From assembly GCA_033065855.1 (NCBI GenBank), contig JAVXUO010003142.1:248001-312000 (forward strand): DNA of 64,000 nt. The letters run 5' to 3'. This DNA is from Escallonia rubra (Eukaryota; Streptophyta; Magnoliopsida; Escalloniales; Escalloniaceae). The notes beneath the pieces are model-generated. The model made no database searches, was not told the origin of the DNA, and saw nothing but the letters and a program-made list of their open reading frames with translations. Position 1 is the stretch's first letter. Every line of letters begins with the position of its first letter. Shown here in pieces: positions 1,553 through 60,441 of this stretch. A program made the translations under genes and the position numbers.

Positions 1553-2711
1553 ATGGGGGGGGGAGAATACGGAATTCTCTAAAAGGAAGGAAAGCACCTG
1601 GTAATATCTACCCGTTCTTTTCTTTGACCGAAGGGTGGCAGTTGGCCCGACGAGGCGGCGGCGCAATGAGGGCGAGCGTCGTAGCCGGTGGCAACATGAG
1701 GAGGCGTCGGTCAGATCAGCGTGGAGCCTTTTGCCCTCATTGTGCAAGTCAGTATAGATTGGAGTTAGAGTTAGACGGTCGCCGGAGAGGCAGTGGTACA
1801 ATGGTGTGGCTGCGGCGCCGATCTGTTGCCTCGAGGTTGGCGCTGATGGCGGCACTGTTGTGGTGAGCAAGAGGCCGATAAAAAAGTCTATGTTGTGGCG
1901 CCTAGCTCCGCGTTGCTTGTCGCGGTGGAGTGGATCTAGAGTCGATCCGACCAACAGTGATGCAGATTTCGAAGCTGGTAGCGGCAAGACAGCGATGCAA
2001 CGGCGCCGATTAGTGCTATTGCTAGTCACGATGGTGGTGGGGCCGATGGGTACTGCCGCTCGTCGCGGTGGTGGCGTCTCTACGGCGCGGGTCTCATGGT
2101 GGCGCTGTCGTGGTGTCCTCTTCTCTTCTGTCTTGTTTATTTATTTATTTTTTTGGTCGTTGCTCTGGAAGTTGTACGGCGGTGGCTGTTTGTGACACTG
2201 GTGACCCCGGTGGCTTGATGGTTGTGCGGGCGTGGGGCTGCCATGTAGGTGCTGTTAATGGCGGTAGCACCGCTGCTGTTTAGGGTTTTGCCCATGAGGG
2301 CAGCAAGCGGAGGGGAGTTTGCCAACTGATGCGTTTAAGGGTCACGGTCACGGCACCGATTGGCGCAGATCTGGTTGTGGTTGTTGCGACTGTGCGGTGA
2401 CAATGGCTAAGCTGCTGTTGTTTGGTTGTCGGCGTACTTATGATCTCAAATTTTTTTCTTCGATGTGGTAATGGTACCCCCATGGTGGCTGTGTGGCCGT
2501 GAAGGCTGCTTTTGGCAGCTCTGCAGATGGCAGTAGTGGATGCAGACCTGTGTTTTTCCGTTCTCTTTTTTTCCTCAACTGTTTGACGATGGTAGGACCG
2601 TTTTGACGACGGCGGGCTGTCGGTGGCTTGGCTGCTGGCGGCAGCTTGTAATGAATGAATAATCTTGAGGTCAATCAGCTAGGCTGGTGGGTCCCACGGA
2701 TGGCACAAATC
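1553..2711 (-). mobile_element. Internal region of a minus-strand LTR element, non-coding or decayed
   Basis: On the minus strand a motif TTTGTGCCATCCGTGGGA (2692-2709) matches the primer-site neighbourhood typical of Tat-type Ty3/gypsy elements, and a near-relative occurs at 10144-10163. Downstream on the minus strand (toward low coordinates) is a GC-rich tract whose ORFs (for example 2438-2674) are arginine- and proline-rich without a recognisable domain. I infer the leader or gag start of a decayed element. Nothing here looks like an intact gene. Confidence 0.35.
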
Positions 2712-3570
2712 TGTTCCTGTTAAAAATATGCTCCGGGTATGCTCTGGAACCCTAGCCAAGAACAATGACCTGCAAGACAAAAAACGAGGGACTGCCGGGT
2801 GGGGTTCTCGGAGAAGAACTCTCCGATGCTTGAGTCAGAGCAAAGCTACACGGTAGAACTCTGAGAAAAGCAGGAAAAGACTGTGTGTCTGTGTGTGGTT
2901 GTTTGTGTACCTGGGGGTAGTCCCCTTTATATAGTTGTAGGTAGAAGACCCTTAGTAGGATTGGGCCGTGGGCCAGATCTGTTAGGATCCTTGAGGATCA
3001 TGTCACGATCCTTGAGGACTCTTTTAGAATCCTAATTCTTGATAAGATAATTATCAAACTTGTAGATTGACCCAGTTTGACTGGGAATGCCGGGTCCCCT
3101 CTAAATATTGGAGTTGAGTTATATCATAGAGTAAAAGAGAAATGGGTTGATCTGGGAGGATCTCAGTTATATTGATTGAAGACCTCTAGGAACAATGGTA
3201 GAGGAACTGAGAAGCAATTGTGGCATTTCGAGCAAGTTCGACTTTTACCATTGTGCACTGTTTTTCGAAAACAGGCATAAGTTTGTCATAGAGACTCGGA
3301 TTTAGGTGATCTATACACCATTGGAAAGATACCACGACATCATGGCAGTTCGGAGCGGCAAAATCAATAGCAAAGACCCTCGTAATTTACTGTCAAAGTT
3401 CGGTCAACCCTTTAACCAACTTTGATCGAACTGTTTGCCCATGTTTGGGTTGTTTTCTTGCGTTGGTTCAAGAGAAACACTTGATGCTTATCCAACAAAA
3501 AATCCATCCATGCAAGGGTTTGCACAAGTACCGCAATTTGGTCATATATGAAATTACCTCTCTAGCCTTG
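2712..3570 (-). mobile_element. LTR-like region of the same minus-strand element
   Basis: The minus strand holds a TATA-like CTATATAAAGGGG (about 2924-2936) some 200 bp before the primer-site-like motif, and the region ends next to that motif as a 5' LTR should. Plus-strand 2985-3040 repeats GGATCCTTGAGGA / GATCCTTGAGGACTC. The outer LTR boundary is not clear, and no second copy is in the window. No gene is seen in this stretch. Confidence 0.35.
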
Positions 3571-3625
3571 TTGTGGTGAATATCTAGACCGACCAGAGGG
3601 AGCCCGAGCAAATCTGCACAGCACA
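3571..3625 (-). repeat. Short LTR-end homology to the Tat element at 10169
   Basis: The stretch starting TGTGGTGAATATCTAGACCG resembles TGTGGTCGAAATCTGGACCG at 10168, and similarity runs on for about 50 bp. In both cases this would be the 3' terminus of a minus-strand LTR. After about 3625 the two copies diverge, so this is only a related fragment. Confidence 0.35.
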
Positions 3626-3645
3626 AACAAGACAAATCTGCATCG

Positions 3646-4000
3646 TGGTGACGAGCAGACAATAGGTATTCATCATAGCTCTTCTTGCCGGTCTGACGAG
3701 CAAATAATTAGGAACCCAAAGCAACTCATTTGCTCGATCTGACGAACAGAGAGATTAGAGTCCATCGCTGCTCTTCTACTCGATCTGACAAGCAGAGAAC
3801 TAGGAACCAAAAGGAGCTCGTCTGCTAGGTCCAACGAGTAGAGAGACAAGAGTCCATCGCAACTCTTATGCTCGGTCTGACGAGCAAAGAACTAGGAATC
3901 CAAAGGAGATCATCTGCTCAGTTTGACGAGCTGAGAGATAAGAGTCAATCGCAATTCTTCTGCTCCGTCTGACGAGCAGAGAACTAGGAATCCAAAGGAT
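3646..4000. repeat. 46-bp satellite with a 92-bp dimeric higher-order unit
   Basis: Units start with a TGCTCG..TCTGACGAGCAGAGA core, itself an imperfect dyad (TGCTCGTC / GACGAGCA). Two unit types alternate: one continues ATTAGAGTCCATCGC, the other ACTAGGAATCCAAAGGA. At least six consecutive units are present between 3690 and 3998. Confidence 0.65.
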
Positions 4001-4039
4001 TTACCAAACTTTCTCATGATCGAAAGGTCCACTCAGATT

Positions 4040-5535
4040 TACTGAGATTTCATTCAATGGGCACAAGAGTAATCTTTGCCCCCAGCATCGTTTATTGTGT
4101 ACAAGGAGATTCGTGGAGTCACGCCACGTGTCTACTACCCCAATGGTCATGTAATCCTAGCCGTTGGATGTTGACTCATCTCCTATATAAAGAGAACTCC
4201 CTTCATTTGTGCTCATACCATTTCATTCGAAGCGAAAGGGGAGTTGTTACACTTCAGAGATGTTGTGAGAGTTGGAAGATTCTTTAAGGGGGAGCAGCCG
4301 GAGAATACGGAGAGAGGCGGGGTTCTTGATACTTAGAATATCCCTCGCCACTACTCTTTTAAGTTTCAAGTAAGGCTCAAAACCCTCCAACTTCCTTACA
4401 ATCTTCTTTGTTTGATCCAAAACATGTCAACCGCCAATAGCGACTATGTTTCTGAGCTTAACGATAATGCTAGGAGCATTAGGGTAGAGAAAGGAAGGAC
4501 TTTCAGTCGTATGGTTTTAGAATAGGTACTACTGTGATAGCCTACATTAAGCCTTGTCAGCCTTCTGCAAAGGAGGTTTTGGCCGAGAAGGCTCACAATC
4601 AAAGCCCTTTTACGCACATACCCTTAGGATAAACTAAGCAGTGCAAGATCCCTAGGTATGTAAAGCTAAGGTTGCTGAATGATGGAGAGGCGGCAAACAC
4701 GTGCACCATAGACAAAATAGTTGTCTATGCAGATATTTTTTACAAATGTTTTAGGTACCAATCCACATGTTCTTTGCTAAAATGCTTAATAGGTACGACC
4801 TGGCACCCGGCCAGTTGTCTCCCCATGCTTGGCATTTCATCCAACCACAATTGGAAGGATCGATTTTTGTTTATCAAACTCCCTGAGGGTGTAGCATGTC
4901 TATTCCAAATAAGTGGAACCCATAGAGACAAGATCCTGTGATGCTCCGACATAAATGGACTTACACGAAACGGATTTGAAGCACATTGAACGGCTCAGAG
5001 TAGGTGAGCCCATAAATTAAAAACACTCATTAAGTAATGAACATCTTTGTGGAATTATTCAAGACTACGAAGGCTTGGATGAAGAGGAGGGCCAACATAA
5101 TCTTGGTAATTGTCTTTGCATATGTGGAGCTCATTCTTCGCCTTTTCACTTACTAACAACATTATTTGCAGAGAATATGACGTCCGGAGACCCTCAAGGC
5201 AGTGGAGGTAGCCTAGCCATCAAAAAGGACCAACCTCTATTAGCAGCGCCTGGGTTCGTGTTAGGGGAGGTCATACCAGACGACCTTCATGCAATCAGGA
5301 CTATGAGGTCCAAGACATTGATCTTGACGCCTTGGAGACAACACAGCCACCAAAGAGGTCAAGGCACGAGCGGGTTGTACTTGGTCTGGGAGCTGCTAAG
5401 GAGGTGCCCAAGGAGGGGCCAATGAAAGGCTGCCCTTCTTCATCTGCAAAGTCTGACACCCCCCAACGGCAAGATTGGAGTGTCGCGATCGATGAATCAG
5501 TTTTAAAGAGCGCTCAAACTGGGATGGTTTAGAGT
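4040..5535 (+). pseudogene. Decayed gypsy-type element with Transposase_28-like (gag-like) protein
   Basis: A TATA-type sequence (CCTATATAAAGAG at about 4190) precedes an ATG at 4425 whose frame reads MSTANSDYVSEL and stops near 4525. Downstream, broken frames between 4660 and 4930 contain a run resembling RYDLAPGQLSPHAWHFI, which fits the plant family Pfam calls 'Putative gypsy type transposon' (Transposase_28). Further frames at 5177-5530 (starting MTSGDPQGSGG and ending near GMV) look like the hydrophilic continuation. Several frameshifts and stops exist, so it is not functional. Family assignment is from recall of the conserved motif and is moderate. Confidence 0.4.
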
Positions 5536-5543
5536 ATGACCCC

Positions 5544-5846
5544 TCAGAGTATGACCCCATTGCCAGGGCCAAAAATGGGATGGTTCAGCACACCGCACAA
5601 GTAAGTGAAACCAAAGGTGTTGGTGCCTGTAAAGGATAGAGAAAAGCATTGACAAGTATCACATCGCTTGGTGTAGTCCAAGGTGTCTCGTTTCATAGTT
5701 GGCCAGTAGTACCTTTGACGGAGGACTTTGTGCGCGAGTACGCGCCCTCCTAGGTGTTGTCCGCAGATTTTTTCACATACCTCTCGAAGGGCATTTTTGC
5801 CTCGGAGGGTGTGAGGCAGCGAAGATATGGTAGCGTGAACGATCAT
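5544..5846 (-). pseudogene. Ty3/gypsy integrase N-terminal zinc-binding fragment
   Basis: The translated minus strand shows H..H then C..C spacing in a context ending RYYWPTM..D..DYTKRCDTCQ, the typical H2C2 integrase zinc-binding module of plant Ty3/gypsy elements. It follows the RNase H remnants of the same element. The frame leaves family similarity after the CDTCQ motif and ends at 5544, and no DDE core follows. It is a terminal fragment of a dead polyprotein. Confidence 0.7.
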
Positions 5847-6999
5847 TTGTAGAGAATGTCTTCTATGATTGCATATCTTACCAAACGGGTCACAATGCTC
5901 TTTTCTTGTCGGCAGGTAGGGTGTCGTGCTCGAGGCAGGTCCTGATCAGGTCGATCCACGAAGGCTCCTGTGCTATGTCCATCACTTCTTGCTCAATGAT
6001 GCTACGTTCTTGCAAGAGCTCCAGGTGGACGGTGCGGCCGAAGCCTGACGTGTCAAGCGAGGCTAGTCGCGATAGAGCGTCGGCTTACGCGTTATCATCC
6101 CTGCTGATTTGAGTGATGGCGAAACGCTTGAAAGCTTTGGCAAGCTCCTTGGCTTTATTGAGGTATTCTGCCGTTCGCGGGCTTCGTATTCTCCAAATAG
6201 TTACTTAGACGACGAGCTGGGAGTCACTGTTGGCCTGAAGGGACAAGATGCATTCCTACTATAAGGGCTTTGTATTCAGCTTCATTGTTTGAGGCTGGGA
6301 AGCCGAAGCAGAGGGCATACTCAATGGCAAGACAATTAGGCCTTTTGAGGATGAGCCCTGTTCCACTTCCACTGGCGTTGGAATATTCGTCCACGTATAG
6401 CCTTCATGTAAAGACTTCTTCTGTGGGATCATCGTTCTGCAGAGCTTTGTCTTCAACAGGGAAAGTGCACTCGACGATGAAGTCTACGGGGGCTTGGCCC
6501 TATAAAGAAGCGCGAGACTTGTACCGTATGTCAAACTCACCCAAGTTCTACGGACCATGCAACTATTCGTTGGATATATTAGGCTTGTGTAATATCTGAC
6601 GAAGGGGTTTATCCGTGAGCACGGTGATGGAATGCAATTGGAAGTATAGTTGAAGCTTGCATGCCGCGATCAGGATTCTGAAGGCGAGCTTTTCAGTACC
6701 CGGATAATGGAGCTTGGCTCCTTAAAGGACCTTGCTCACATAGTAGATGGGGAGCTGCATACTATCCTGCTCCCGAATGAGGACAGCGCCGACGGTGGAG
6801 TCAGCGATGGCTAGATAAAGAAGCAGCTCTTCTCCAATGAGCGACTGGGATAGGAGTACGGGCGAAGGGAGGTCGCCTTTTAAGGCGTCAAATGAGGTTT
6901 GACACTCGGATGTCCATTTAAAGCTCTTCGGTCCTGGTTTTGAAGAATGGCAAACATCTTTCGATCGACTTAGAGAGATATCAACTCAGGGCCACTATT

Positions 7000-50536: not shown

Positions 50537-50540
<4 letters not shown>

Positions 50541-50605
<65 letters not shown>
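50541..50605. repeat. AT microsatellite at the Mutator-like insertion site
   Basis: About 32 AT dinucleotides up to the first base of the element. AT repeat resumes at 59971 on the other side, so the element landed in a longer AT tract. Confidence 0.95.
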
Positions 50606-50608
<3 letters not shown>

Positions 50609-50850
50609 AGCTGATCCCTTGACAGCGCTGGCAAAATAGGAGATCTTGCCAGCGCTATCTGGCCGTCCATGGACGGCTCAGATCACTTTTTTTTGCGGCG
50701 CTGTCAGTCGTCCGCTACATAGTGTAGCGGACGGACCTTTTTACCATCTTGCCCTCGCTCACCCGTCCGCTAGACTGTGTACCGGACGACATTCTTGGGC
50801 CAACAAAAAGTAGTCCGCTACACTGTCTAGCGGACGACTGTTTCCGTCAA
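50606..50850 (+). repeat. Left terminal inverted repeat of the MULE
   Basis: It contains an 11-bp-arm hairpin (50624-50634 with 50646-50656), a 16-bp perfect palindrome GCCGTCCATGGACGGC (50662-50677) and three of the 23-bp dyads (50710, 50765, 50813). A fourth dyad lies just inside at 50920. Confidence 0.95.
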
Positions 50851-50969
50851 ACCACCCACTTCCCCCTGACAGTTGTCACATCAGTCGATGCACGACTGTT
50901 ACTTTGTCGTTATCCCAGCGTCCGCAACACAGTGTAGCGGACATTGGCAAGTATTCGAAACCTTTTAAA

Positions 50970-51170
50970 CTTCTATTCATTCCTTCTTCTCACAATCAAA
51001 CTATTCCTTCTTCTCACGATCAAACCAGCGGCGTTGGCAAGTAGATCGGCGCAATTTCTTTGCAAGAAATCCTTTAATCGTCTCATCAATCACGTAAGTT
51101 CACAAACTAATCCTTTCTTTGTTCATAATCTAGAGTTCATCTTGCGGCGTTGGCAAGTAGATCGGCACTA
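50970..51170. repeat. Short direct duplications in the leader of the fusion gene
   Basis: A 24-bp unit with ATTCCTTCTTCTCACAATCA is repeated in tandem at about 50978-51025. GCGGCGTTGGCAAGTAGATC occurs at 51028 and 51146. Confidence 0.7.
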
Positions 51171-51322
51171 TGCTAGCGTTTGTCAATGTATATACATATA
51201 TATTATATATGTGTATTGCGTATTATCTGATCACATGCTAGCGCTGAATATGCTAGCGTTGTATGTTTGGGAATGTTTACGCTTCCAACCTTGCCCTCTT
51301 TCCATTATTTCAGTTGCAAAAA

Positions 51323-54300
51323 ATGGATTTCAACCCTGGACCAGAAGATTCGTCCGTATTATACGACCAAGCAAACCATATCAGTACGCTCATATGGGAT
51401 GGTGGAGTAAGATACTTATTTTATCGTTTATATCGTTTATTTTGCTTACGTATTTCAGTTGCGAACGTTGTATATCGTTTATTTTGCTTAAATAATATTT
51501 ATTAATTTGTAGGAAAGAGCACTTGTCAACACGGTAGAAGTAAGCGATAATTTCAACGCCTGGAAATTGAACAGAACCCAGAAAAGATTACTGCGTGGGA
51601 TTGGGTTTGGGATTTTCACGCATGGGCAGATCTTTCAACAACTTGACAGGCACTTAATAGGTGCCCTTGTTGAAAGGTGGAGAAGTGAAACGAATACGTT
51701 TCACTTCCCTTTCGGAGAGATGACAATTACCCTAGAAGATGTAGGGTTCATCTTAGGGTTACCGGTGACGGGGCGGCCGGTAATAGCTCATCCGTCCGAA
51801 GCAACGAATAAGAGGACCGCTAGGGACTTCTTTACTTCGATACCCCAGGATGGATTTAGCAGTGGTGGTATCAAGTTGAAGTGGTTGGTAGATACCTACG
51901 GGGTTTTGCCGGAAAACTATACGGGCCATGACCTTGTGCTGTACACACAAGCCTTCCTCTGGTGGGTGATGGGGGCAATATTATTCCCAACGACGTCGAA
52001 GAACACGGTCAGCGTCAAATATTTACCGTTTTTGCGTAACCTGGCTGAGGTTGGGGATAATGCCTGGGGTGCAGCAACTCTTGCATACCTGTACCGAGCA
52101 TTGCACAAGGCAACGAGGCCCGACTCCAAAGCGATATGTGCATGTCTCTCGCTATTGCAGGTATATCATACAATTCTTTATTACGTGCTCTTTGTTGTTT
52201 TTTTTTGTTGAATGGACAATAAATGTTGACGATACTTTTTTTAATGTCTTTGCTCTCAGGTGTGGTCTTATGAACACCTTGTTACCGGCACACCCACGCG
52301 TAGGGACGGAACATATAATGTGTGGCCTCGGTTGTGCGCCTGGGAGTACAGCCGGAAGGAAACCCACTACGAGAGGAGAGACGATCCCCATCACAACATT
52401 TCATACTATCGGGGGGAGCTCGACTCGTTATCTCCTGGCCAGTTGCGATGGGCACCGTACAAACGTTTGGCGCGACGGGTGGGAGAGTCGTTCGTCTTCA
52501 TGCTCTCCGGGTTGCAACGCACACCCCTGATCCACTTCGAGGTCGCAGAGTGGCAGCTGCCAGATCGCGCTATGCGCCATTTTGACTGCCTTCAGGGGTT
52601 GCCAGCCGGAGCGCCAGATATGAGGCTTAACAGGAACCCACCGGGTGTCGGACTGTTTGGCAGGGCGAATGCGCACGAGTTATGCGCGCGTGAAATTGAG
52701 GTCTGGACTTCCTGGCAGGACATGCTGGCGGCCATTGTGTCGGAGCCTGACCCCGTCATCAGCATCGAACAGTACAATGAGTGGTACTACCGCATCACCC
52801 GGAGGAGAGTAGTTCCAGTAAGGTTTGAACGAAGGGAGAAGTACCACCCTAGGGGTCAGATCGATGAGCACATGGCATACAATCTGGTAAGTTGCCCAAC
52901 CAGTGCTTCTAATTGAACTTGATCATTCTAAGTGTGTACGAAGTTACTTATTTATTATCTCTCTGGATGTAGGTTAATGCCTCGTTCGCCTTCTTCCAGA
53001 AGTTGAGCGAGCGGAAGGATTTGGTGGATGCCATGGGCGAGGAGCTTCGCCAACAGGCTGAAGCGTTGGCGAATGGCTGCGGGAATTTTTTGTGGCAAGC
53101 ATCGGGACAGCCAAACCTGGGAATGGGTTATCCGGGGTGGCAGCGGCCGTTTGTTCCCGAGGGATGCACCGATCCCTCGGGACAGACTTCGGGAGTGAGC
53201 CAGGGATATGGTTTTCCCTCTATACCGGAGATGGGTGGTGATTGGGGACCGCCAAGCACCATGGGCCAGGCTCAAGCGCCGTGGGAAGATTACAGTGCGC
53301 CCTCCTTCTCTTTACTATTGGATTCGGAACCTCAACCCCTCTCTCAGAGTCAAGTCACGCAAGACTGGGGTTTCAGAAACATCAGTCTGCCCATTGTCCC
53401 GTGGGCAGGACCATCTATTGCCGAAGGCGGGAAATACCCCCCTCCGTTGACCCCCCTGAAGGAGTGCAATATCCCCCCGTCGACCCCCCGAAGGAGTGCA
53501 ATATCCCCCCGTCGACCCCCTCCGAAGGAGTGCAATACCCCCCGGTCGACCCCCGAGGACAATATCGCAAAGGGCATCCGTTGAAGCCCCTAAAGCCGCA
53601 GAAATGCCAGATAATCAGAGAGCGTTATTTTAGCGGCTACCCGCATGACCAAGCGTTGTATAGTGTGGATCATCCGGAGGGCATGGATTACAATTGCTCG
53701 TGGGGAGAACTGGCCTCCCTGGCTCTGGGGAGTTGGTTAGACAACGGTGTCGTCTCCACCTACGTGGAGATTCTGAAGGAAAGGTGTCGGCAGTAGCCGA
53801 CCTATCCGGCCGTTTTTTTGTTCGATGCCTTTTTTCATGGCATCCTAGTGTCTGAATGGCAGGAGTGGGTCGAAAATAGGGGGAAGAAAAAGTTAGCCCA
53901 GTGGAGACCGTCCGTTAACCTACGAGCGTATCTTAATAGGGATAGTCCGGTGAGCGCAAGTGTTGCCGATGTGTTTCTAATCCCATTTCTAGGGCAAAGC
54001 CACTGGTACTTGGTTTGCTACTCCCCAACAAGTAAAGTCGTATCGGTGATCGACAGTCTCCACGACGATACTCATCAGATGCCTGTGCTGCAGATGTACA
54101 GAGCCCAGTTGGACTCATTGGTAATATTACGATCGCTGTATAATGCTCTGATTCTATCTTGCCATAAATTTTAACTCGTGTCTTACGCCATTTTCTGTTT
54201 CTCGCAGAATATTTTTTGTGCAATGGTCAATCGTGTCCGTGATGTCCCCGTACCGGCGCGGCCAAATCTCGATAGGCGATTGAAGAAGAGGAGGCCCAAG

Positions 54301-54519
54301 CAACATAACACTTCGGACTGCGGCGTCTTCCTTTGCATGTACATGGATTTCATTTGTCGCTCTGAGAGCCTCAAGGCGGCCGTCTGGAGCCAAGCAGAAG
54401 TTGAAGCCTATAGATATATAATAGCTTGGCAAATTATGAAAGGCCGGCCTAGAGCGGTTAGGTTTATAGAAAATCCGGCTAATGACGAGAATCCGCCCCA
54501 ACATGCGGACCCCAGTTAA
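51323..54519 (+). pseudogene. Plant mobile domain protein fused to a Ulp1/C48 cysteine protease domain
   Basis: Five exons join in phase 0 with GT-AG borders: 51323-51406, 51513-52160, 52260-52886, 52973-54120 and 54208-54519, about 940 codons. Exons 1-3 code a plant mobile domain (start MDFNPGPEDSSVLYDQ, then TITLEDVGFILGLPVTGRPV), known from MAIN/MAIL proteins and many transposons. Exon 4 has a proline-rich linker with repeated GVQYPPVDPP. The C48 domain follows with catalytic His in QSHWYLVCY (codon 54001), Asp in VIDSLHDD (54052), and Gln and Cys in QHNTSDCGVF (Cys codon 54319), so the triad is complete. This family removes SUMO or related modifiers. Two lesions exist: a one-base shift in the C-rich linker (about 53440-53560) and an in-frame TAG at 53794. 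Without them it would be open throughout, so sequencing or assembly error in the C-runs should be considered. Confidence 0.85.
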
Positions 54520-54716
54520 AATTGTATCATAACAGTATTTTTTACATAAACCGTACGCCATTGGTGTGATTTGATTTGTGTTGATTTCTGTTGTCGATTA
54601 CTGATTGATTGATGAACGTTGTTGGTTTTTTGGCCTCATTGGGAATGATTGAAATGTGGAAAACGAAATGGTGCAAAAATTTTCTAAGTAGTGAAGTTTA
54701 GTCTTTCTGCTGTGCC

Positions 54717-55556
54717 GTCCGCTATACAATGTAGCGGACAAATGTAGGTAGAGAATTTTTCTAAGTGTTGATGGGTGGAGCTTTCTGCTGCGTCGTCCGC
54801 TATATAATATCGCGGACGTAAATGAAAACCAAAAGTTTCTGCTATGCTGTCCGCTACATTGTATAGCGGACGTAAAATGAAGACCAAATTTTTCTAAGGG
54901 TTGATGGGTGGAGTTTCTGCTGCGCCGTCCGCTACATTGTATGGCGGACGTAAAATGAAGACCAAATTTTTCTAAGTGTTGATGGGTGGAGTTTCTGCTG
55001 CGCCGTCCGCTACATTGTATAGCGGACGTAAAATGAGTTTCTGCTATGCCGTCCGCTACATTGTATAGCGGACGTAAAATGAAGACCAAATTTTTCTAAG
55101 TATTGATGGGTGGAGTTTCTGCTGCGCCGTCCGCTACATTGTATGGCGGACGTAAAATGAAGACCAAAATTTTCTAAGTGTTGATGGGTGGAGTTTCTGC
55201 TGCGCCGTCCGCTACATTGTATAGCGGACGTAAAATGAAGACCAAATTTTTCTAAGTGTTGATGGGTGGAGTTTCTGCTGCGCCGTCCGCTACATTGTAT
55301 AGCGGACGTAAAATGAGTTTCTGCTATGCCGTCCGCTACATTGTATAGCGGACGTAAAATGAAGACCAAATTTTTCTAAGTGTTGATGGGTGGAGTTTCT
55401 GCTGCGCCGTCCGCTACATTGTATGGCGGACGTAAAATGAAGACCAAATTTTTCTAAGTGTTGATGGGTGGAGTTTCTGCTGCGCCGTCCGCTACATTGT
55501 ATAGCGGACGTAAAATCAGTTTCTGCTATGCCGTCTGCTACATTGTATGGCGGACG
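54717..55556. repeat. Palindrome array 1, thirteen dyads with a 280-bp higher-order period
   Basis: Each unit has a 23-bp dyad with arms GTCCGCTA and TAGCGGAC. Dyads start at 54717, 54795, 54849, 54927, 55005, 55051, 55129, 55207, 55285, 55331, 55409, 55487 and 55533. Spacing is 78 bp, with 46-bp short units and one of 54. From 54927 the pattern 78-46-78-78 repeats exactly (280 bp, then 280 bp). The array lies between the 3' ends of the fusion gene and the B3 gene. Confidence 0.95.
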
Positions 55557-55706
55557 TAAAATCAGTTTCTGCAGTTAACGTACGATTCACAATCAACGAT
55601 CTCAATATATCGAGGGAATCTCAAACGACACAATTAAGCACAATTAAGCGAGGAAAAATTTCGAAACACAATCAACAAGAACACAAATTATTTTATTAAT
55701 AATAAA

Positions 55707-56177
55707 TTAGGGTTCATATTGGGGGAAAGAAATTTTTTCACAAGTGCTCCGATCAAAGATTACAACTTGAAAATCCCACCACCCAAGGTGTTCAAACACT
55801 ACAAAGTCCCCGAGTTCGAGGCCATGCTGGCGCACGAAGACGTTCCAACCCTCTGCGAATTGCTTTTTTTGGGGTCGGCCGGGCTTCAGCTTGATTTCAA
55901 CCTGCCATGCCCCTTTGCGGCTATATAATCTTGCACTGTCATGAATTGTTGTAAATTGATTGGTCAAGGCTTCCGGTATGTCCTAACAAACACAATACAC
56001 AAAAAATAGGTTAGTTTTTAACCAAAAGATCAAACCTTTAACACACGAAAATACAGAGATAGAGGGATGGCATACAAGTTCATTCTCAAACCCCGGCATC
56101 ATGACTTTGAAAAAGTGTTTGCCTGCCAGGTGCAAGTTGCCAATAAAATCGTAGGTGGTCTCCGATCCACAAGCCAT
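55707..56177 (-). CDS. B3 DNA-binding domain protein (REM-like), carried inside the MULE
   Basis: Two exons on the minus strand, 56177-56076 (34 codons) and 55982-55707 (91 codons plus stop), join in phase 0 with GT-AG borders. The product is about 125 residues and is essentially one B3 domain: KHFFKVMMPGFENEL, then DIPEALTNQFT, then GWNVFVRQHGLELGDFVVFE and WWDFQVVIFD. The F-K-V-M-x-P-G-F start, the G-W-x-x-F and the G-D-x-x-V-F-E signatures are as expected for REM-type B3 domains, which bind DNA in the nucleus. No activation or protein-interaction domain is added. No stop or frameshift is seen, unlike in its two neighbours. It is flanked on both sides by palindrome arrays. B3 genes are common in plant genomes; finding one between MULE termini suggests capture or a long-standing element gene. 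Confidence 0.85.
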
Positions 56178-56338
56178 CGAGGTCGGCGTTGAGGGGGGGA
56201 CGGTTTATCGCCGGAGTTGTGGGTCACCGGAGATGGAGTAGTGGCCTGGGCTAGATGTTCGAGACAGAGAGAGTGCCCTCCAGATAGGACTGATAACAGC
56301 CGATTGCCCGATATGATTAATATATATCATATAGACTT

Positions 56339-56577
56339 ATCCGCTACATTGTATAGCGGACGTAAAAGAAGACCAAAAGTTTTACTGCGATGACGTCCGC
56401 TATATTATATAGCGGACATTAAAGAAGACCAAAAGTTTGCATGCTGTGACGTCCGCTACATTGTATAGCGGACGTAAAAAGACCAAAAGTTTTACTTCGA
56501 TGCCACCTCTCCGCTATACAATATAGCGGACGTAAAAGACCAAAAGTCGATGACGTCCGCTACATTGTATAGCGGAC
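56339..56577. repeat. Palindrome array 2, five dyads upstream of the B3 gene
   Basis: The same dyad starts at 56339, 56395, 56451, about 56509 and 56555, with 56-58-bp spacing and a last interval of about 46. Spacers share GTAAAAGA..GACCAAAAGT. The array lies between the B3 start and the transposase 3' end. Confidence 0.9.
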
Positions 56578-56727
56578 GGGGCTTACAAAAAAAAAAAAAA
56601 TTTGAAATAAAGACTTTAGATTTGATTCGATGGCCTCTCATAGGTCCATTTTTAAAAAATTTTAGTACTCGGTCGAAAAATTATCCCTCCAAAAATTATT
56701 ACAAATGTCATAAAGTTGTACAAAAAA

Positions 56728-59024
56728 TTAAAGGTCCACTGCAGCTTGTTCGTCCTCATCTTCGGCGTCATCTTCTTCCCCGTCTTGCAAACCCCCTGAA
56801 CTTATCCCCAGTGCCTTGTAATGGTTCCGCTTGTCGTGGTCGGTCATTTTGTTGCACAATACACACCTTCGCAGCTTTTTAGGTTGAGTTGCCGTTTCAA
56901 TAGAGCTTTTCATCCGCGTAGATCTCTTGCGGCCTTTCGTTTACGATATAATTGGATCCAACAAACGGATATCATTGTCGTCTTCCTCCTCTGGCTCGTC
57001 ATCTTCTGATACCCCCATCGTAGGCTAGGTGTCAATCGCATTGGTGACTGAAGCTGCTTCCAACTGGTCGGCGATGGGCTCTTGTTGCTGAGTTACCTCG
57101 AGGAGATGTTTATAACCGACCATTGTAGCAGCACCCTTTACGGACAAACGGGTGAACATCGTCACCAGATGATTATACCGCAACGTCTCTGATTCTTCAA
57201 AGTCAGTATGCGGGTGCTCCGGAAAGGAAATGGTACCGTGCAACCTGTTTGCACCTTTTGTCCACCGTGGCAAGACGTATTTATCAGGGATTGTCCTGAT
57301 ATTCTTCTGGGTGAAAAACCGCAGAACGTGTCTACACAGGATGCCATGGAACTCAAACTTCTTGCAAACACATGTCACCAAGTCCGTCAATGTGTCGTGG
57401 CTCACCGTATACATTCTGCGCAGCTTCTCAGGGACGAGGTCATTCACGAGCGAATAAACCTTGTACTCACGCGTAGACATTTCTGCCACCTTGTTTATAC
57501 TGTATCGTCCGGATTTTCGCAGCTCTACTTGGTATAGCAAGAAGATCTCCTTCGTATAGACTTTGGCACCGTTCAGCTCCAGCGGGGTCTCGAGCAACGT
57601 TCTCCTTTGTTTGTACGTTGTTGCAAAATCGGCAGCCCTTTCTTTTACGAACAACGAAGCTACCGCTTTTTGTGCGGATGCAACGAAAGTCTTCAAATTG
57701 GTAGCTGTACCCACATAACTATCGAATGTGGCATTCATGGATTCACTCCTGCCCGTCGTTTTTATCCCCGCTGAAAAATACCTCCTCGTGTAAACGCCAA
57801 TCCATTGCTCTTTGCGCTCGTACAAGTGCTGGAGCCACTCGTTGTCTTGCAATGAGTAATCCCGAACAAGCTTTTCCCACCTCTCCTCGAATTCCTCAAT
57901 CGTTAACGACTTGAGGACGCACTTGTCAAAATCCTGTTTAAAGTCTGGATACTTTGTGTACACGTGATGTAACCGTTCCGGGTATTTGTTGCTTATGTGC
58001 CAGGTGCACAAGTTGTGCCGAGTGTCTGGGAAGACGGTCGCAATAGCCTTTTTCATTGCCAAATCTTGATCGGTGATGATCACTTTGGGTGCTTTGAAGT
58101 TCATTGCTTCCAGCCACGTCCTAAACAACCATTCAAAAGAACTCTCGGTCTCGTCCCTTAACAAGGCGAACCCGAACGGGATGGAGTGATAATGATGATT
58201 GACCCCCGTGAAAGGGGCGAACGGCATCGAGTACTTGTTGGTACGGTATGTGGTGTCGAACGTCACGACATCCCCAAAATGCTTATAAGCAAGCCTCGAA
58301 CGACCGTCGACCTAAAAAATTGTGCTAACTCGATGCTCGTCGTCAAGTTTATAATCGAAGGTCAACTGCGGGTCCTCCATCTGCATCCGTTTCAATAGGC
58401 TCATTATGGCTTGAGCATCATTGAGGTCATACGCGGCTCGTCTATGGGTTCGGACCGCGTTACGAACGTCTGCGTGTTAAAGGTCAAATTTTGAATTCCC
58501 CCAGCCTGTTCAGCAAGAACATTAATCATGTCGGTAGGTCCTAGTCGCGCATTGCTCATTGTCTGAATCAGGCTCCTTGCGACCTTACCCATCTTCTTGT
58601 GTTGATGCATCTGACTCACCTTAGAAGGGGTTACTAACGGGTGATTGTGTGCCAGTTCCAGGCTGATAATAAGCCAATGGTCTTGATTGGGTTTGTAGCT
58701 TACGAACATCTTGACCTGGCAATTTGTGCGCTCAAAGCAGTCCCGTCTTCTACGCGGATATCCTATTTCGTCATCACTGTCATCATTGCCTACGCGTGTC
58801 TCATTTTGCACTGGGTTTCTGCTCCTATGGCACTCGTATAAGCGAGAGCATATCTTTCTCGTTATGGTGCTCGTTCTTGAAGTCTTTATTCTAATGCCAA
58901 AACCAACCCTCAATGAATACGCTCGAAAACATTCTTCAGCTTCTTCCAACGTAGCAAATGTTCGTCCTAGATACGGATCACTAGCATCTACGAGGACGTT
59001 GGAGCTCGACACGAAATCAGACAT
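56728..59024 (-). pseudogene. FAR1/FHY3-like MULE transposase
   Basis: The minus-strand frame starts MSDFVSSSNVLVDASD at 59024; an upstream in-frame ATG at 59069 lacks family similarity. It has a FAR1 DNA-binding zinc domain (FATLEEAEECFRAYSLRVGFG, then CxxxxxxxC and LAHNHPL), the MULE catalytic region (VTFDTTYRTNKYSMPFAPF, VIITDQDLAMKKAI, NLCTWHISNKY), a SWIM zinc finger C-x-C-x9-C-x-H (about 57375-57320) and a C-terminal CVLCNKM..H..H knuckle near 56850. Total is about 765 codons, near the usual length. Lesions: a frameshift near 58440, TAG at 58312, TAG at 57025 and TAA at 56941. Each stop interrupts otherwise matching sequence. Its job would be excision and insertion of this element. Confidence 0.9.
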
Positions 59025-59447
59025 TGTGAAACAAGAGCTGTGTAGAAATAAACTACGCTTAACAATCAAATGGCATTTCTAACTGAAAATATTACCTAAA
59101 AATTACCTTGGCGAATAGACCAATTTAGGATGACAAACATACCGTATGCATAATCTCAAAAGTGTCTCCAAATTAACAATTATTAATTTATTGAACATAA
59201 CAAATTTAAATTAGTAAGATAAATAGACGAATTCATCATGCCAAAAAATCGAATTAAACTATAATGAATTAAATATAAAGTTAACAAATTATACCTTTTT
59301 GATGAACATCATGTCTAGAACATCACAAAAAATCTAGAGTATAAAATCACAAATTGATGAATACAGTGACAAATTTCTAGAACATCAAGAAAACTTGAAG
59401 CAAACTTACCTTGCTTGAGCGAAGCTTGAAGCAAGTGTTACTCGAAG

Positions 59448-59600
59448 CTTGAAGGCAGCTGAAAATGGAAGCGAGTCCGAAGGAGAAGAAAATTGTGCTG
59501 AAAGAAAATTGAGTAGGCTTGAAGGCAGCTGAAAATGGAAGCGAGTCCAAAGGAGAAGAAAATTGAGTAGAAGAAAATTGTGCTGAAAGAAAATTGAGTA
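59448..59600. repeat. 70-bp tandem duplication upstream of the transposase
   Basis: Two units with CTTGAAGGCAGCTGAAAATG and GAAGCGAGTCC start at 59448 and 59518. They lie between the transposase start and the right terminal repeat, likely in its leader or promoter. Confidence 0.75.
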
Positions 59601-59709
59601 GGTTTTGGGGATGGGCAATACTGTCCGCTATACTGTGTAGCGGACAGAATTGCCGACAACAAGTCACACTTGTGTCAGACAAGTCACAATTGTGTCAGAA
59701 TTACATAGT

Positions 59710-59970
59710 TGTGACAGTCGTCCGCTGGACAGTGTAGCGGACTACTTTTTGTCGGACGATGTGGGCCCAAGAATGTCGTCCGCTACACAGTCTAGCGGAC
59801 GGGTGAGCGAGGGCAAGATGGTAAAAAGATCCGTCCGCTACACAGTGTAGCGGACGACTGACAGCGCCGCAAAAAAAAGTGATCTGGGCCGTCCATCCCT
59901 TCGGGATGGACGGCCAGATCGCGCTGGCAAGATCTCCTATTTTGCCAGCGCTGTCAAGGGATCAGCTCCC
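59710..59970 (-). repeat. Right terminal inverted repeat of the MULE
   Basis: It carries dyads at 59720, 59778 and 59833 (a fourth lies inside at 59623), the same terminal hairpin as the left end, and at 59887-59915 a 13-bp-arm hairpin where the left repeat has a 16-bp palindrome. Confidence 0.95.
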
Positions 59971-60441
59971 ATATATATATATATATATATTAACTAGGAA
60001 AGAGAGGAGAAGTAATAATCCATGTAACCATGATTGTTGTAGCTAATGCATACATTTGAGGGGTTAGAATGTCCTCATATGTGTACATGTATTGTACAGC
60101 AAGTCGTCGAGTGTTACTGCATCCAAGTGGCTCCTTCTTATGCGAGAATACACGGACACACGTAGTAGACCTCGGTCGACTAGACTAACGCGCCAGGGGG
60201 TGGAGTTGGAAAGCACAATCACCGATGATGATACTCTCAAATAAGGACATGCATTTATGTATGTATGTGGGCAGACAAAAGAAAGGACCCCCAACTCTCT
60301 CTCTCTCTCTCTCTCTCTCTCGCTCTCGGGAAAATAATACTATCCACGTTCACTCCAACAAGCAGCCGTCCGCCCACCTCTCTCTCTCTCTCTCCCTCTC
60401 ACCCCCTCACCCAATCTGCTGAGCTGTTCTTCACTGTAGCC
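59971..60441 (+). promoter_or_regulatory. Upstream region and 5' leader of the MAPKKK3-like gene
   Basis: The remainder of the AT tract (59971-59990) is followed by about 300 bp of ordinary sequence and then a CT microsatellite (60296-60320) and a further CT-rich tract (60379-60403), typical of plant 5' leaders. No TATA box is convincing. The MULE ends at the left border, so it lies within 726 bp of the kinase start codon. Confidence 0.55.

What the first reader, a model, noticed from the sequence alone, without database searches (positions are those of the whole stretch)
50606..59970. Near-intact Mutator-like element carrying transposase, mobile domain-SUMO protease fusion and a B3 DNA-binding gene
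The ends, the long terminal repeats and the 9-bp flanks define one unit. Ulp1-bearing MULEs and plant mobile domain genes in transposons are known; a third gene that is a free-standing B3 domain, with two palindrome arrays, is a combination I do not know as described. It looks like a transposon with its own regulatory toolkit.
Basis: partly seen in the sequence, partly recalled or inferred. Interest (0 to 1): 0.88.

Follow-up and report, generated by a model that had tools for sequence, protein, structure and literature searches.

The report
Three-gene jumping element targeting TA repeats
This is one damaged copy of a large family of plant jumping DNA that lands in TA-repeat tracts and carries, besides its transposase, a protease fusion gene and a small DNA-binding (B3) gene that looks like an old, inherited part of the family rather than a one-off theft from the host.

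Summary
The element is real: 9,365 bp, inverted ends of about 240 bp, FAR1/MULE transposase, plant-mobile-domain-Ulp1 fusion gene and a two-exon B3 gene. It is not near-intact: the transposase and PMD-Ulp1 frames are broken here; sister copies with an open transposase exist. The 9-bp flanks carry no weight alone, since both flanks are (TA)n; but 33 of 33 visible ends of 18 copies lie in TA arrays, so this is a microsatellite-targeting MULE, a known kind (MuTAnT, SaTar). B3 is no one-off: 150 listed places and three subfamilies with B3 in the same slot. Of 18 window-type copies read, 4 have B3 and 12 have the other two genes without it. The rooted transposase tree puts the B3-less copies in one nested clade (support 94): B3 ancestral, then lost; Ulp1 and PMD trees do not show this split. 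A 23-bp palindrome lies upstream of all three genes, about 22 sites per element and 11,428 exact matches in the genome (control 0). Best reading: a MULE with its own regulatory set, by analogy with VANC/KIU; that function is inference. No paper found describing a resident B3 gene in a MULE.

The parts
50539..50605 (.). left flank: (TA)n microsatellite that holds the element
   Evidence: 67-bp TA run
50606..50841 (+). left terminal inverted repeat; palindrome sites at 50710, 50765 (one imperfect arm) and 50813, one more at 50920 beyond it
   Evidence: inverted repeats I1, I2, I5; alignment and positions
51323..54519 (+). PMD-Ulp1 fusion gene, 5 inferred exons (51323-51406, 51513-52160, 52260-52886, 52973-54120, 54208-54519); broken here by a frame change in the Pro-rich repeat (about 53450-53554) and an in-frame stop
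   Evidence: frames, Pfam PMD 2.2e-72 and C48 1.8e-11; linker-Ulp1 exon open in frame with PMD in copies C397 and C23
54717..55555 (.). palindrome array 1, between the converging 3' ends
55707..56177 (-). B3 gene, two exons (56177-56076 and 55982-55707 with stop), 125 aa, open
   Evidence: frames, Pfam B3 1.9e-9; 150 listed genome places
56331..56577 (.). palindrome array 2, about 150 bp upstream of the B3 start codon
56728..59024 (-). FAR1-MULE-SWIM transposase, frame broken here; one uninterrupted frame of 760-761 codons in 8 of 16 sister copies compared
59714..59970 (-). right terminal inverted repeat; palindrome sites at 59720 (imperfect), 59778 and 59833, one more at 59623 beyond it
59971..59989 (.). 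right flank: TA array

Best explanation
It is a degenerate copy of a (TA)n-targeting Mutator-like transposon family in a plant that is very probably Escallonia rubra. SHOWN: three-gene copies (FAR1-type MULE transposase, PMD-Ulp1 fusion, two-exon B3 gene in the transposase's direction) and B3-less copies coexist; two further subfamilies have B3 in the same slot; the transposase tree makes B3 ancestral with loss in one clade that still spread; a 23-bp palindrome lies upstream of the start codons of all three genes and in arrays between them. INFERRED: the transposase cuts and pastes the element into TA arrays as safe havens; the palindrome is the family's operator or recognition site, read by its own DNA-binding proteins (FAR1 domain of the transposase and/or B3); B3 and PMD-Ulp1 are accessory regulators that counter host silencing or tune expression, acting in trans on other copies, so that B3-less copies persist, in the manner of VANC/KIU in VANDAL elements.
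For: Domains and order; 33 of 33 visible ends in TA arrays against 97 of 64,000 window bases in such runs, 86 of them this element's own flanks; 4 of 18 copies read with all three genes, 12 with PMD-Ulp1 and transposase only; B3 in the C26 type and a dead B3 in the C1 type; rooted tree, B3-less clade 94, window type 100; B3 exons 1/378 substitutions against 40/378 in intron and flanks (C1376 vs C26, p=1.4e-11); 393 palindromes in 18 elements, 0 in five shuffles; 11,428 genome matches, backward control 0.
Against: Ulp1 and PMD trees do not contain the B3+/B3-less split, C54 (no B3) groups with B3+ copies in Ulp1: recombination or further losses are possible. Palindrome numbers do not differ between B3+ and B3-less copies, so nothing ties B3 to them. 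B3 silent sites are as still as the others, and the dead C1 copy shows no constraint (pN/pS 0.85), so selection on the protein is not proven. Ulp1 pN/pS is 0.66. No binding, expression or methylation data.
Confidence: 0.55

Rival explanations
1. The palindromes are transposase-binding sites only, like terminal and subterminal repeats of other DNA transposons; B3 and PMD-Ulp1 are passengers or act on host targets.
For: Palindromes sit in both ends and stay at about the same number in B3-less copies; B3-less copies spread.
Against: Large arrays also lie internally, one of them just upstream of B3, where transposase sites are not needed; B3 exons are far less diverged than their surroundings.
Confidence: 0.4
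2. B3 spreads between subfamilies as a module by recombination or gene conversion between copies, so its presence in the C26 and window types is recent exchange rather than common inheritance.
For: B3 exons of the C26 and window types are nearly identical, silent sites included, while silent sites of the transposase differ by 15%; Ulp1 and PMD trees conflict with the transposase tree.
Against: The B3 intron (7/91) and flanks (33/287) have diverged like their surroundings (C1376 vs C26), so the block as a whole was not exchanged recently; the C1 type has its own B3 at 69% DNA identity in the same slot.
Confidence: 0.2
3. B3 is a one-off capture of a host gene by a single copy.
For: 12 of 18 copies lack B3.
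Against: 150 listed places; three subfamilies; B3-less copies are the derived clade.
Confidence: 0.03

Closest known systems
MuTAnT / AutoMuTAnT, Medicago truncatula (PMC4486113; parts 1-2 of 4 of the text read)
   Same: MULE inserted in (TA)n, Jittery-like transposase, long fold-back ends, 9-nt duplication where measurable
   Different: AutoMuTAnT is 4,873 bp with a single gene; no PMD-Ulp1, no B3
SaTar elements and autonomous SaTar-MULEs of guayule and rice, including Micron (PMC5907723; passages)
   Same: MULEs in microsatellites, several elements side by side in one microsatellite
   Different: the passages seen name no accessory genes ('Ulp1' and 'palindrom' occur 0 times in the text)
VANDAL elements with VANC / KIU, Arabidopsis (PMC5735166, Results read; review PMC13317346, passages)
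   Same: MULE with accessory genes, Ulp1 in some; short motif in variable arrays in non-coding parts
   Different: described as non-TIR MULEs with DUF1985-type VANC; here long TIRs, PMD instead of DUF1985 (only a sub-threshold DUF1985 match, E=0.036), plus B3; motif is a 23-bp palindrome
PMD captured by MULEs in grasses and Amborella (PMC5418596; passages)
   Same: PMD inside a MULE; authors speculate on anti-silencing
   Different: theirs are fused to the transposase; here PMD is fused to Ulp1. A collinear PMD-Pro-rich-Ulp1 protein is annotated in celery (P0174; PMD 36%, Ulp1 23%)

Membership tests
Mutator-like element (MULE) | MULE-type transposase domain | tested here: met
   PF10551 3e-33, with FAR1 and SWIM
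Mutator-like element (MULE) | long terminal inverted repeats | tested here: met
Mutator-like element (MULE) | target duplication of about 9 bp | tested here: inconclusive
   all flanks are TA arrays; phase odd in 12 of 15
TA-microsatellite-targeting MULE (MuTAnT/SaTar kind) | copies inserted in (TA)n | tested here: met
   33 of 33 ends of 18 copies; also the one end seen of the C1 type
TA-microsatellite-targeting MULE (MuTAnT/SaTar kind) | empty site is (TA)n alone | not tested
   no second genome or resequenced plant was at hand
VANDAL / VANC (KIU) system | encodes a DUF1985-type VANC protein | tested here: not met
   PMD instead; DUF1985 only E=0.036, 14.5 bits against a cut-off of 35.1
VANDAL / VANC (KIU) system | protein binds the repeated motif and removes DNA methylation | not testable with these tools
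   needs binding and methylation assays
Pack-MULE (host fragment carrier without transposase; definition recalled) | no transposase, recently copied host gene fragment | tested here: not met
   transposase present; B3 shared by three subfamilies
B3 domain proteins | B3 domain above Pfam's cut-off | tested here: met
   PF02362 37.8 bits against 30.1; nearest solved chain VRN1 4i1k, E=0.03, weak; AlphaFold2 on exon 2 alone gave mean pLDDT 52.4 and is not used

The most novel reading that the evidence does not exclude
The element carries a private regulatory circuit: its own B3 protein, perhaps with PMD-Ulp1, reads the palindrome placed upstream of all three of its genes and keeps the whole family (11,428 exact sites in the genome) open to transcription, an anti-silencing system that arose independently of VANC and uses a B3 factor.
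Probability: 0.25. Interest if true: 0.82.

Novelty: new variant of a known kind. Interest (0 to 1): 0.6.

Why it matters
In the papers seen, TA-targeting MULEs are described with a transposase only, and Ulp1- or PMD-bearing MULEs without B3. Here these are combined in one family, with a candidate operator repeated about 22 times per element and natural variants with and without B3. That makes it possible to test whether transposons outside the VANDAL group evolved sequence-specific anti-silencing, and which accessory gene does it.

Tried and rejected
Reading the 9-bp flanks as a target site duplication: not supportable, both flanks are TA arrays. B3 as one-off capture: rejected. dN/dS of B3 within window type: 1 silent, 4 replacement and 1 nonsense change in four sequences, uninformative. 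Palindrome number as a sign that B3 reads it: no difference between B3+ and B3-less copies. Trees of Ulp1 (16 sequences) and PMD exon 2 (15) do not contain the B3+/B3-less split that the transposase tree has at 0.999 (17 sequences). Structure of B3 exon 2 (collected after searches found it unfinished): mean pLDDT 52.4 from a single sequence, not used, no fold search made. Whole-genome counts of a B3 36-mer and of Ulp1 did not complete. Papers: (four terms) 0 papers; (plant mobile domain, Ulp1, transposon) 0; 142 papers hold 3 of 5 terms, the 12 listed have 0 occurrences of 'B3 domain'; ('B3 domain' + 'Mutator-like') 3 papers, on wheat nitrogen, somatic embryogenesis and lupin flowering (search listing only); PMC6446971 holds none of the terms Ulp, B3 domain, accessory, Kaonashi, SUMO, microsatellite. 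The KIU coevolution paper (10.15252/embj.2021110070) is not held. The library is open-access only. Rows 'B3ex1' and 'TPN' used wrong frames and are dropped; redone. In one search the last exon of C397 was anchored badly at its end; only its linker-Ulp1 exon is used.

Full report
WHAT IS THERE. The element runs from 50606 to 59970 (9,365 bp). Its ends are inverted repeats: 65 nt at 98%, 137 nt at 96% and 42 nt at 95%, aligned with small gaps over about 240 bp. Pfam finds FAR1 (2.8e-14), MULE (3e-33) and SWIM (2.8e-5) in the leftward transposase, PMD (2.2e-72) and Peptidase_C48 (1.8e-11) in the rightward gene, and B3 (1.9e-9) in a small leftward gene of two exons (frames; splice sites chosen by me). 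The transposase here is broken into frames of 207 and 428 codons; the PMD-Ulp1 gene has a frame change in its Pro-rich repeat and an in-frame stop; B3 is open. In 8 of the 16 sister copies compared the transposase is one uninterrupted frame over the whole stretch (760-761 codons). In copies C397 and C23 the linker-Ulp1 exon is open in frame with PMD (each has one or two stops within PMD), so PMD-Ulp1 is one fusion gene.

HOST. The window is G000:C1174:248001-312000 of a 566-Mb assembly. Among the protein matches are Escallonia rubra entries (RJ640_023953, 97% over 51% of the query; RJ640_015710, 90% over 45%), so the host is very probably E. rubra; that its genome is of about this size is recalled, not looked up. 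The one B3 relative found is from E. herrerae (P0001, 76%).

TARGET. Both flanks are TA arrays, so the 9-bp flank says nothing alone. But of 18 window-type copies read (15 with both ends, 3 with one), 33 of 33 ends lie in TA arrays, a few of them imperfect. In the window such runs cover 97 of 64,000 bases, 86 of them this element's flanks. The TA phase is odd in 12 and even in 3 of the 15 (two of the odd ones with a mismatch), which fits a 9-bp duplication in most. Several TA arrays hold a second family-like end next to the first (C397, C2824, C940; C3031 and C982). This is the MuTAnT/SaTar habit (PMC4486113; PMC5907723). No empty site was seen.

B3 IS RESIDENT. The B3 protein search gives 241 matches from 150 scored of 1,971 candidates; 150 places are listed. 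Of 32 contigs with a scored terminal repeat, 12 have a listed B3 within 10.5 kb inward (both lists are incomplete, so this is a lower bound). Of the 18 copies read, 4 carry all three genes in the same order (C1174, C2950, C2417, C1376), 12 carry PMD-Ulp1 (some incomplete) and transposase but no B3, C33 has transposase only, C423 shows one end and no gene in 10 kb. Two other subfamilies carry B3 in the same slot and direction: C26 type (transposase 94.7% at DNA level over 1,598 bp; layout; a second locus, C1213:70944) and C1 type (end 75%, transposase 84-92%, B3 region a dead copy at 69%, Ulp1 61-66% aa). Rooted on these, the 13 B3-less copies with a transposase are one clade (support 94) nested among B3+ copies; the nodes that order the B3+ copies are weak (48-69). 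So the transposase says B3 was there first and was lost once. Against this, the Ulp1 and PMD trees do not contain the split; C54, without B3, groups with B3+ copies in Ulp1. Exchange between copies, or more than one loss, is therefore possible. In the three B3-less copies printed, the array runs straight into the transposase 3' region, so the junction lies at the palindrome arrays.

SELECTION. Between C1376 and C26 the B3 exons differ at 1 of 378 sites, its intron and flanks at 40 of 378 (p=1.4e-11); the eight cross-subfamily pairs give p between 1.4e-11 and 0.0015; among the six pairs within window type only one reaches p<0.05 (0.0075) (pairs share sequences and are not independent). Against a simple reading: silent sites are as still as the rest, and the dead C1 copy shows no constraint (pN/pS 0.85, exons no less diverged than the intron). 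Transposase between C26 and window type has pS 0.15, pN 0.028. Pooled polymorphism within window type: pN/pS 0.40 (transposase C-part), 0.50 (N-part), 0.48 (PMD), 0.45 (linker), 0.66 (Ulp1); the five tests made between genes give p of 0.13 or more.

PALINDROME. GTCCGCTAYAYNRTRTAGCGGAC: 393 sites with at most 4 mismatches in 18 elements (17 window-type, one partial C26), 0 in five base shuffles. Genome: 11,428 exact matches of GTCCGCTA-N7-TAGCGGAC, backward control 0. In the window all 41 perfect half-sites are inside the element. Sites lie in both ends, upstream of the PMD-Ulp1 start (51323) and the transposase start (59024), in array 2 about 150 bp upstream of the B3 start (56177), and in array 1 between the converging 3' ends. 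The same palindrome is used in the C26 and C1 types. Numbers do not depend on B3, and array length varies between copies.

HOW IT MAY WORK. Transposition into TA arrays by the FAR1-type transposase is well supported by anatomy. That the palindrome is an operator read by the element's own proteins is inference. The closest worked model is VANC21, which binds a 9-bp motif repeated in non-coding parts of VANDAL21 and lowers DNA methylation (PMC5735166, Results read). Ulp1-bearing VANC genes (KIU) and MULE-captured PMD have been linked to, or suspected of, anti-silencing (PMC13317346; PMC5418596; passages). B3 may be the sequence reader and PMD-Ulp1 the effector; the transposase's own FAR1 domain is the strongest rival reader. 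A weak DUF1985 match to the PMD (E=0.036, below cut-off) is a lead to a deeper kinship with VANC, no more.

NOVELTY. TA-targeting MULEs, Ulp1 in MULEs and PMD in MULEs are known. A collinear PMD-Pro-rich-Ulp1 protein is annotated in celery (P0174, the only one of the 120 listed hits with both Pfam domains). A resident B3 gene with palindrome arrays I did not find in print (open-access library only). Hence: new variant of a known kind. The probability of the novel case was set at 0.25 (0.27 in the draft) after the conflicting Ulp1 and PMD trees were recounted.

Noticed in passing
L044 about 656-1088; also L045 (minus strand) and the C1 element, about C1:17018-17341: An unknown open frame (about 143 aa in L044) next to B3 in the C26 and C1 types, no Pfam family above its cut-off; not seen in the window copy's annotation.
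   Followed up: partly
L044 1101-1462 and L045 1564-1926: A 362-bp repeat with 98-bp inverted ends (97%) that carries two copies of the same palindrome; perhaps a non-autonomous relative.
   Followed up: no
window 55707-56177; L044, L045: B3 exons almost unchanged between subfamilies, silent sites included, although the intron between them has diverged (7/91 vs 1/378, C1376 vs C26). Unexplained.
   Followed up: partly
window about 53450-53554; C1376, C54: Tandem Pro-rich peptide repeat in the PMD-Ulp1 linker varies in number between copies and holds the frame change in the window, C1376 and C54, recalling the variable peptide repeats reported for VANC.
   Followed up: partly
L026 (C33), 1188-1739 and 4170-4721: A 5.3-kb copy with a second transposase N-terminal segment in opposite direction.
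   Followed up: no
L029 (C3031), between PMD exons, about 2600-6600: PMD gene interrupted by an insert of about 4 kb with a 588-codon open frame.
   Followed up: no
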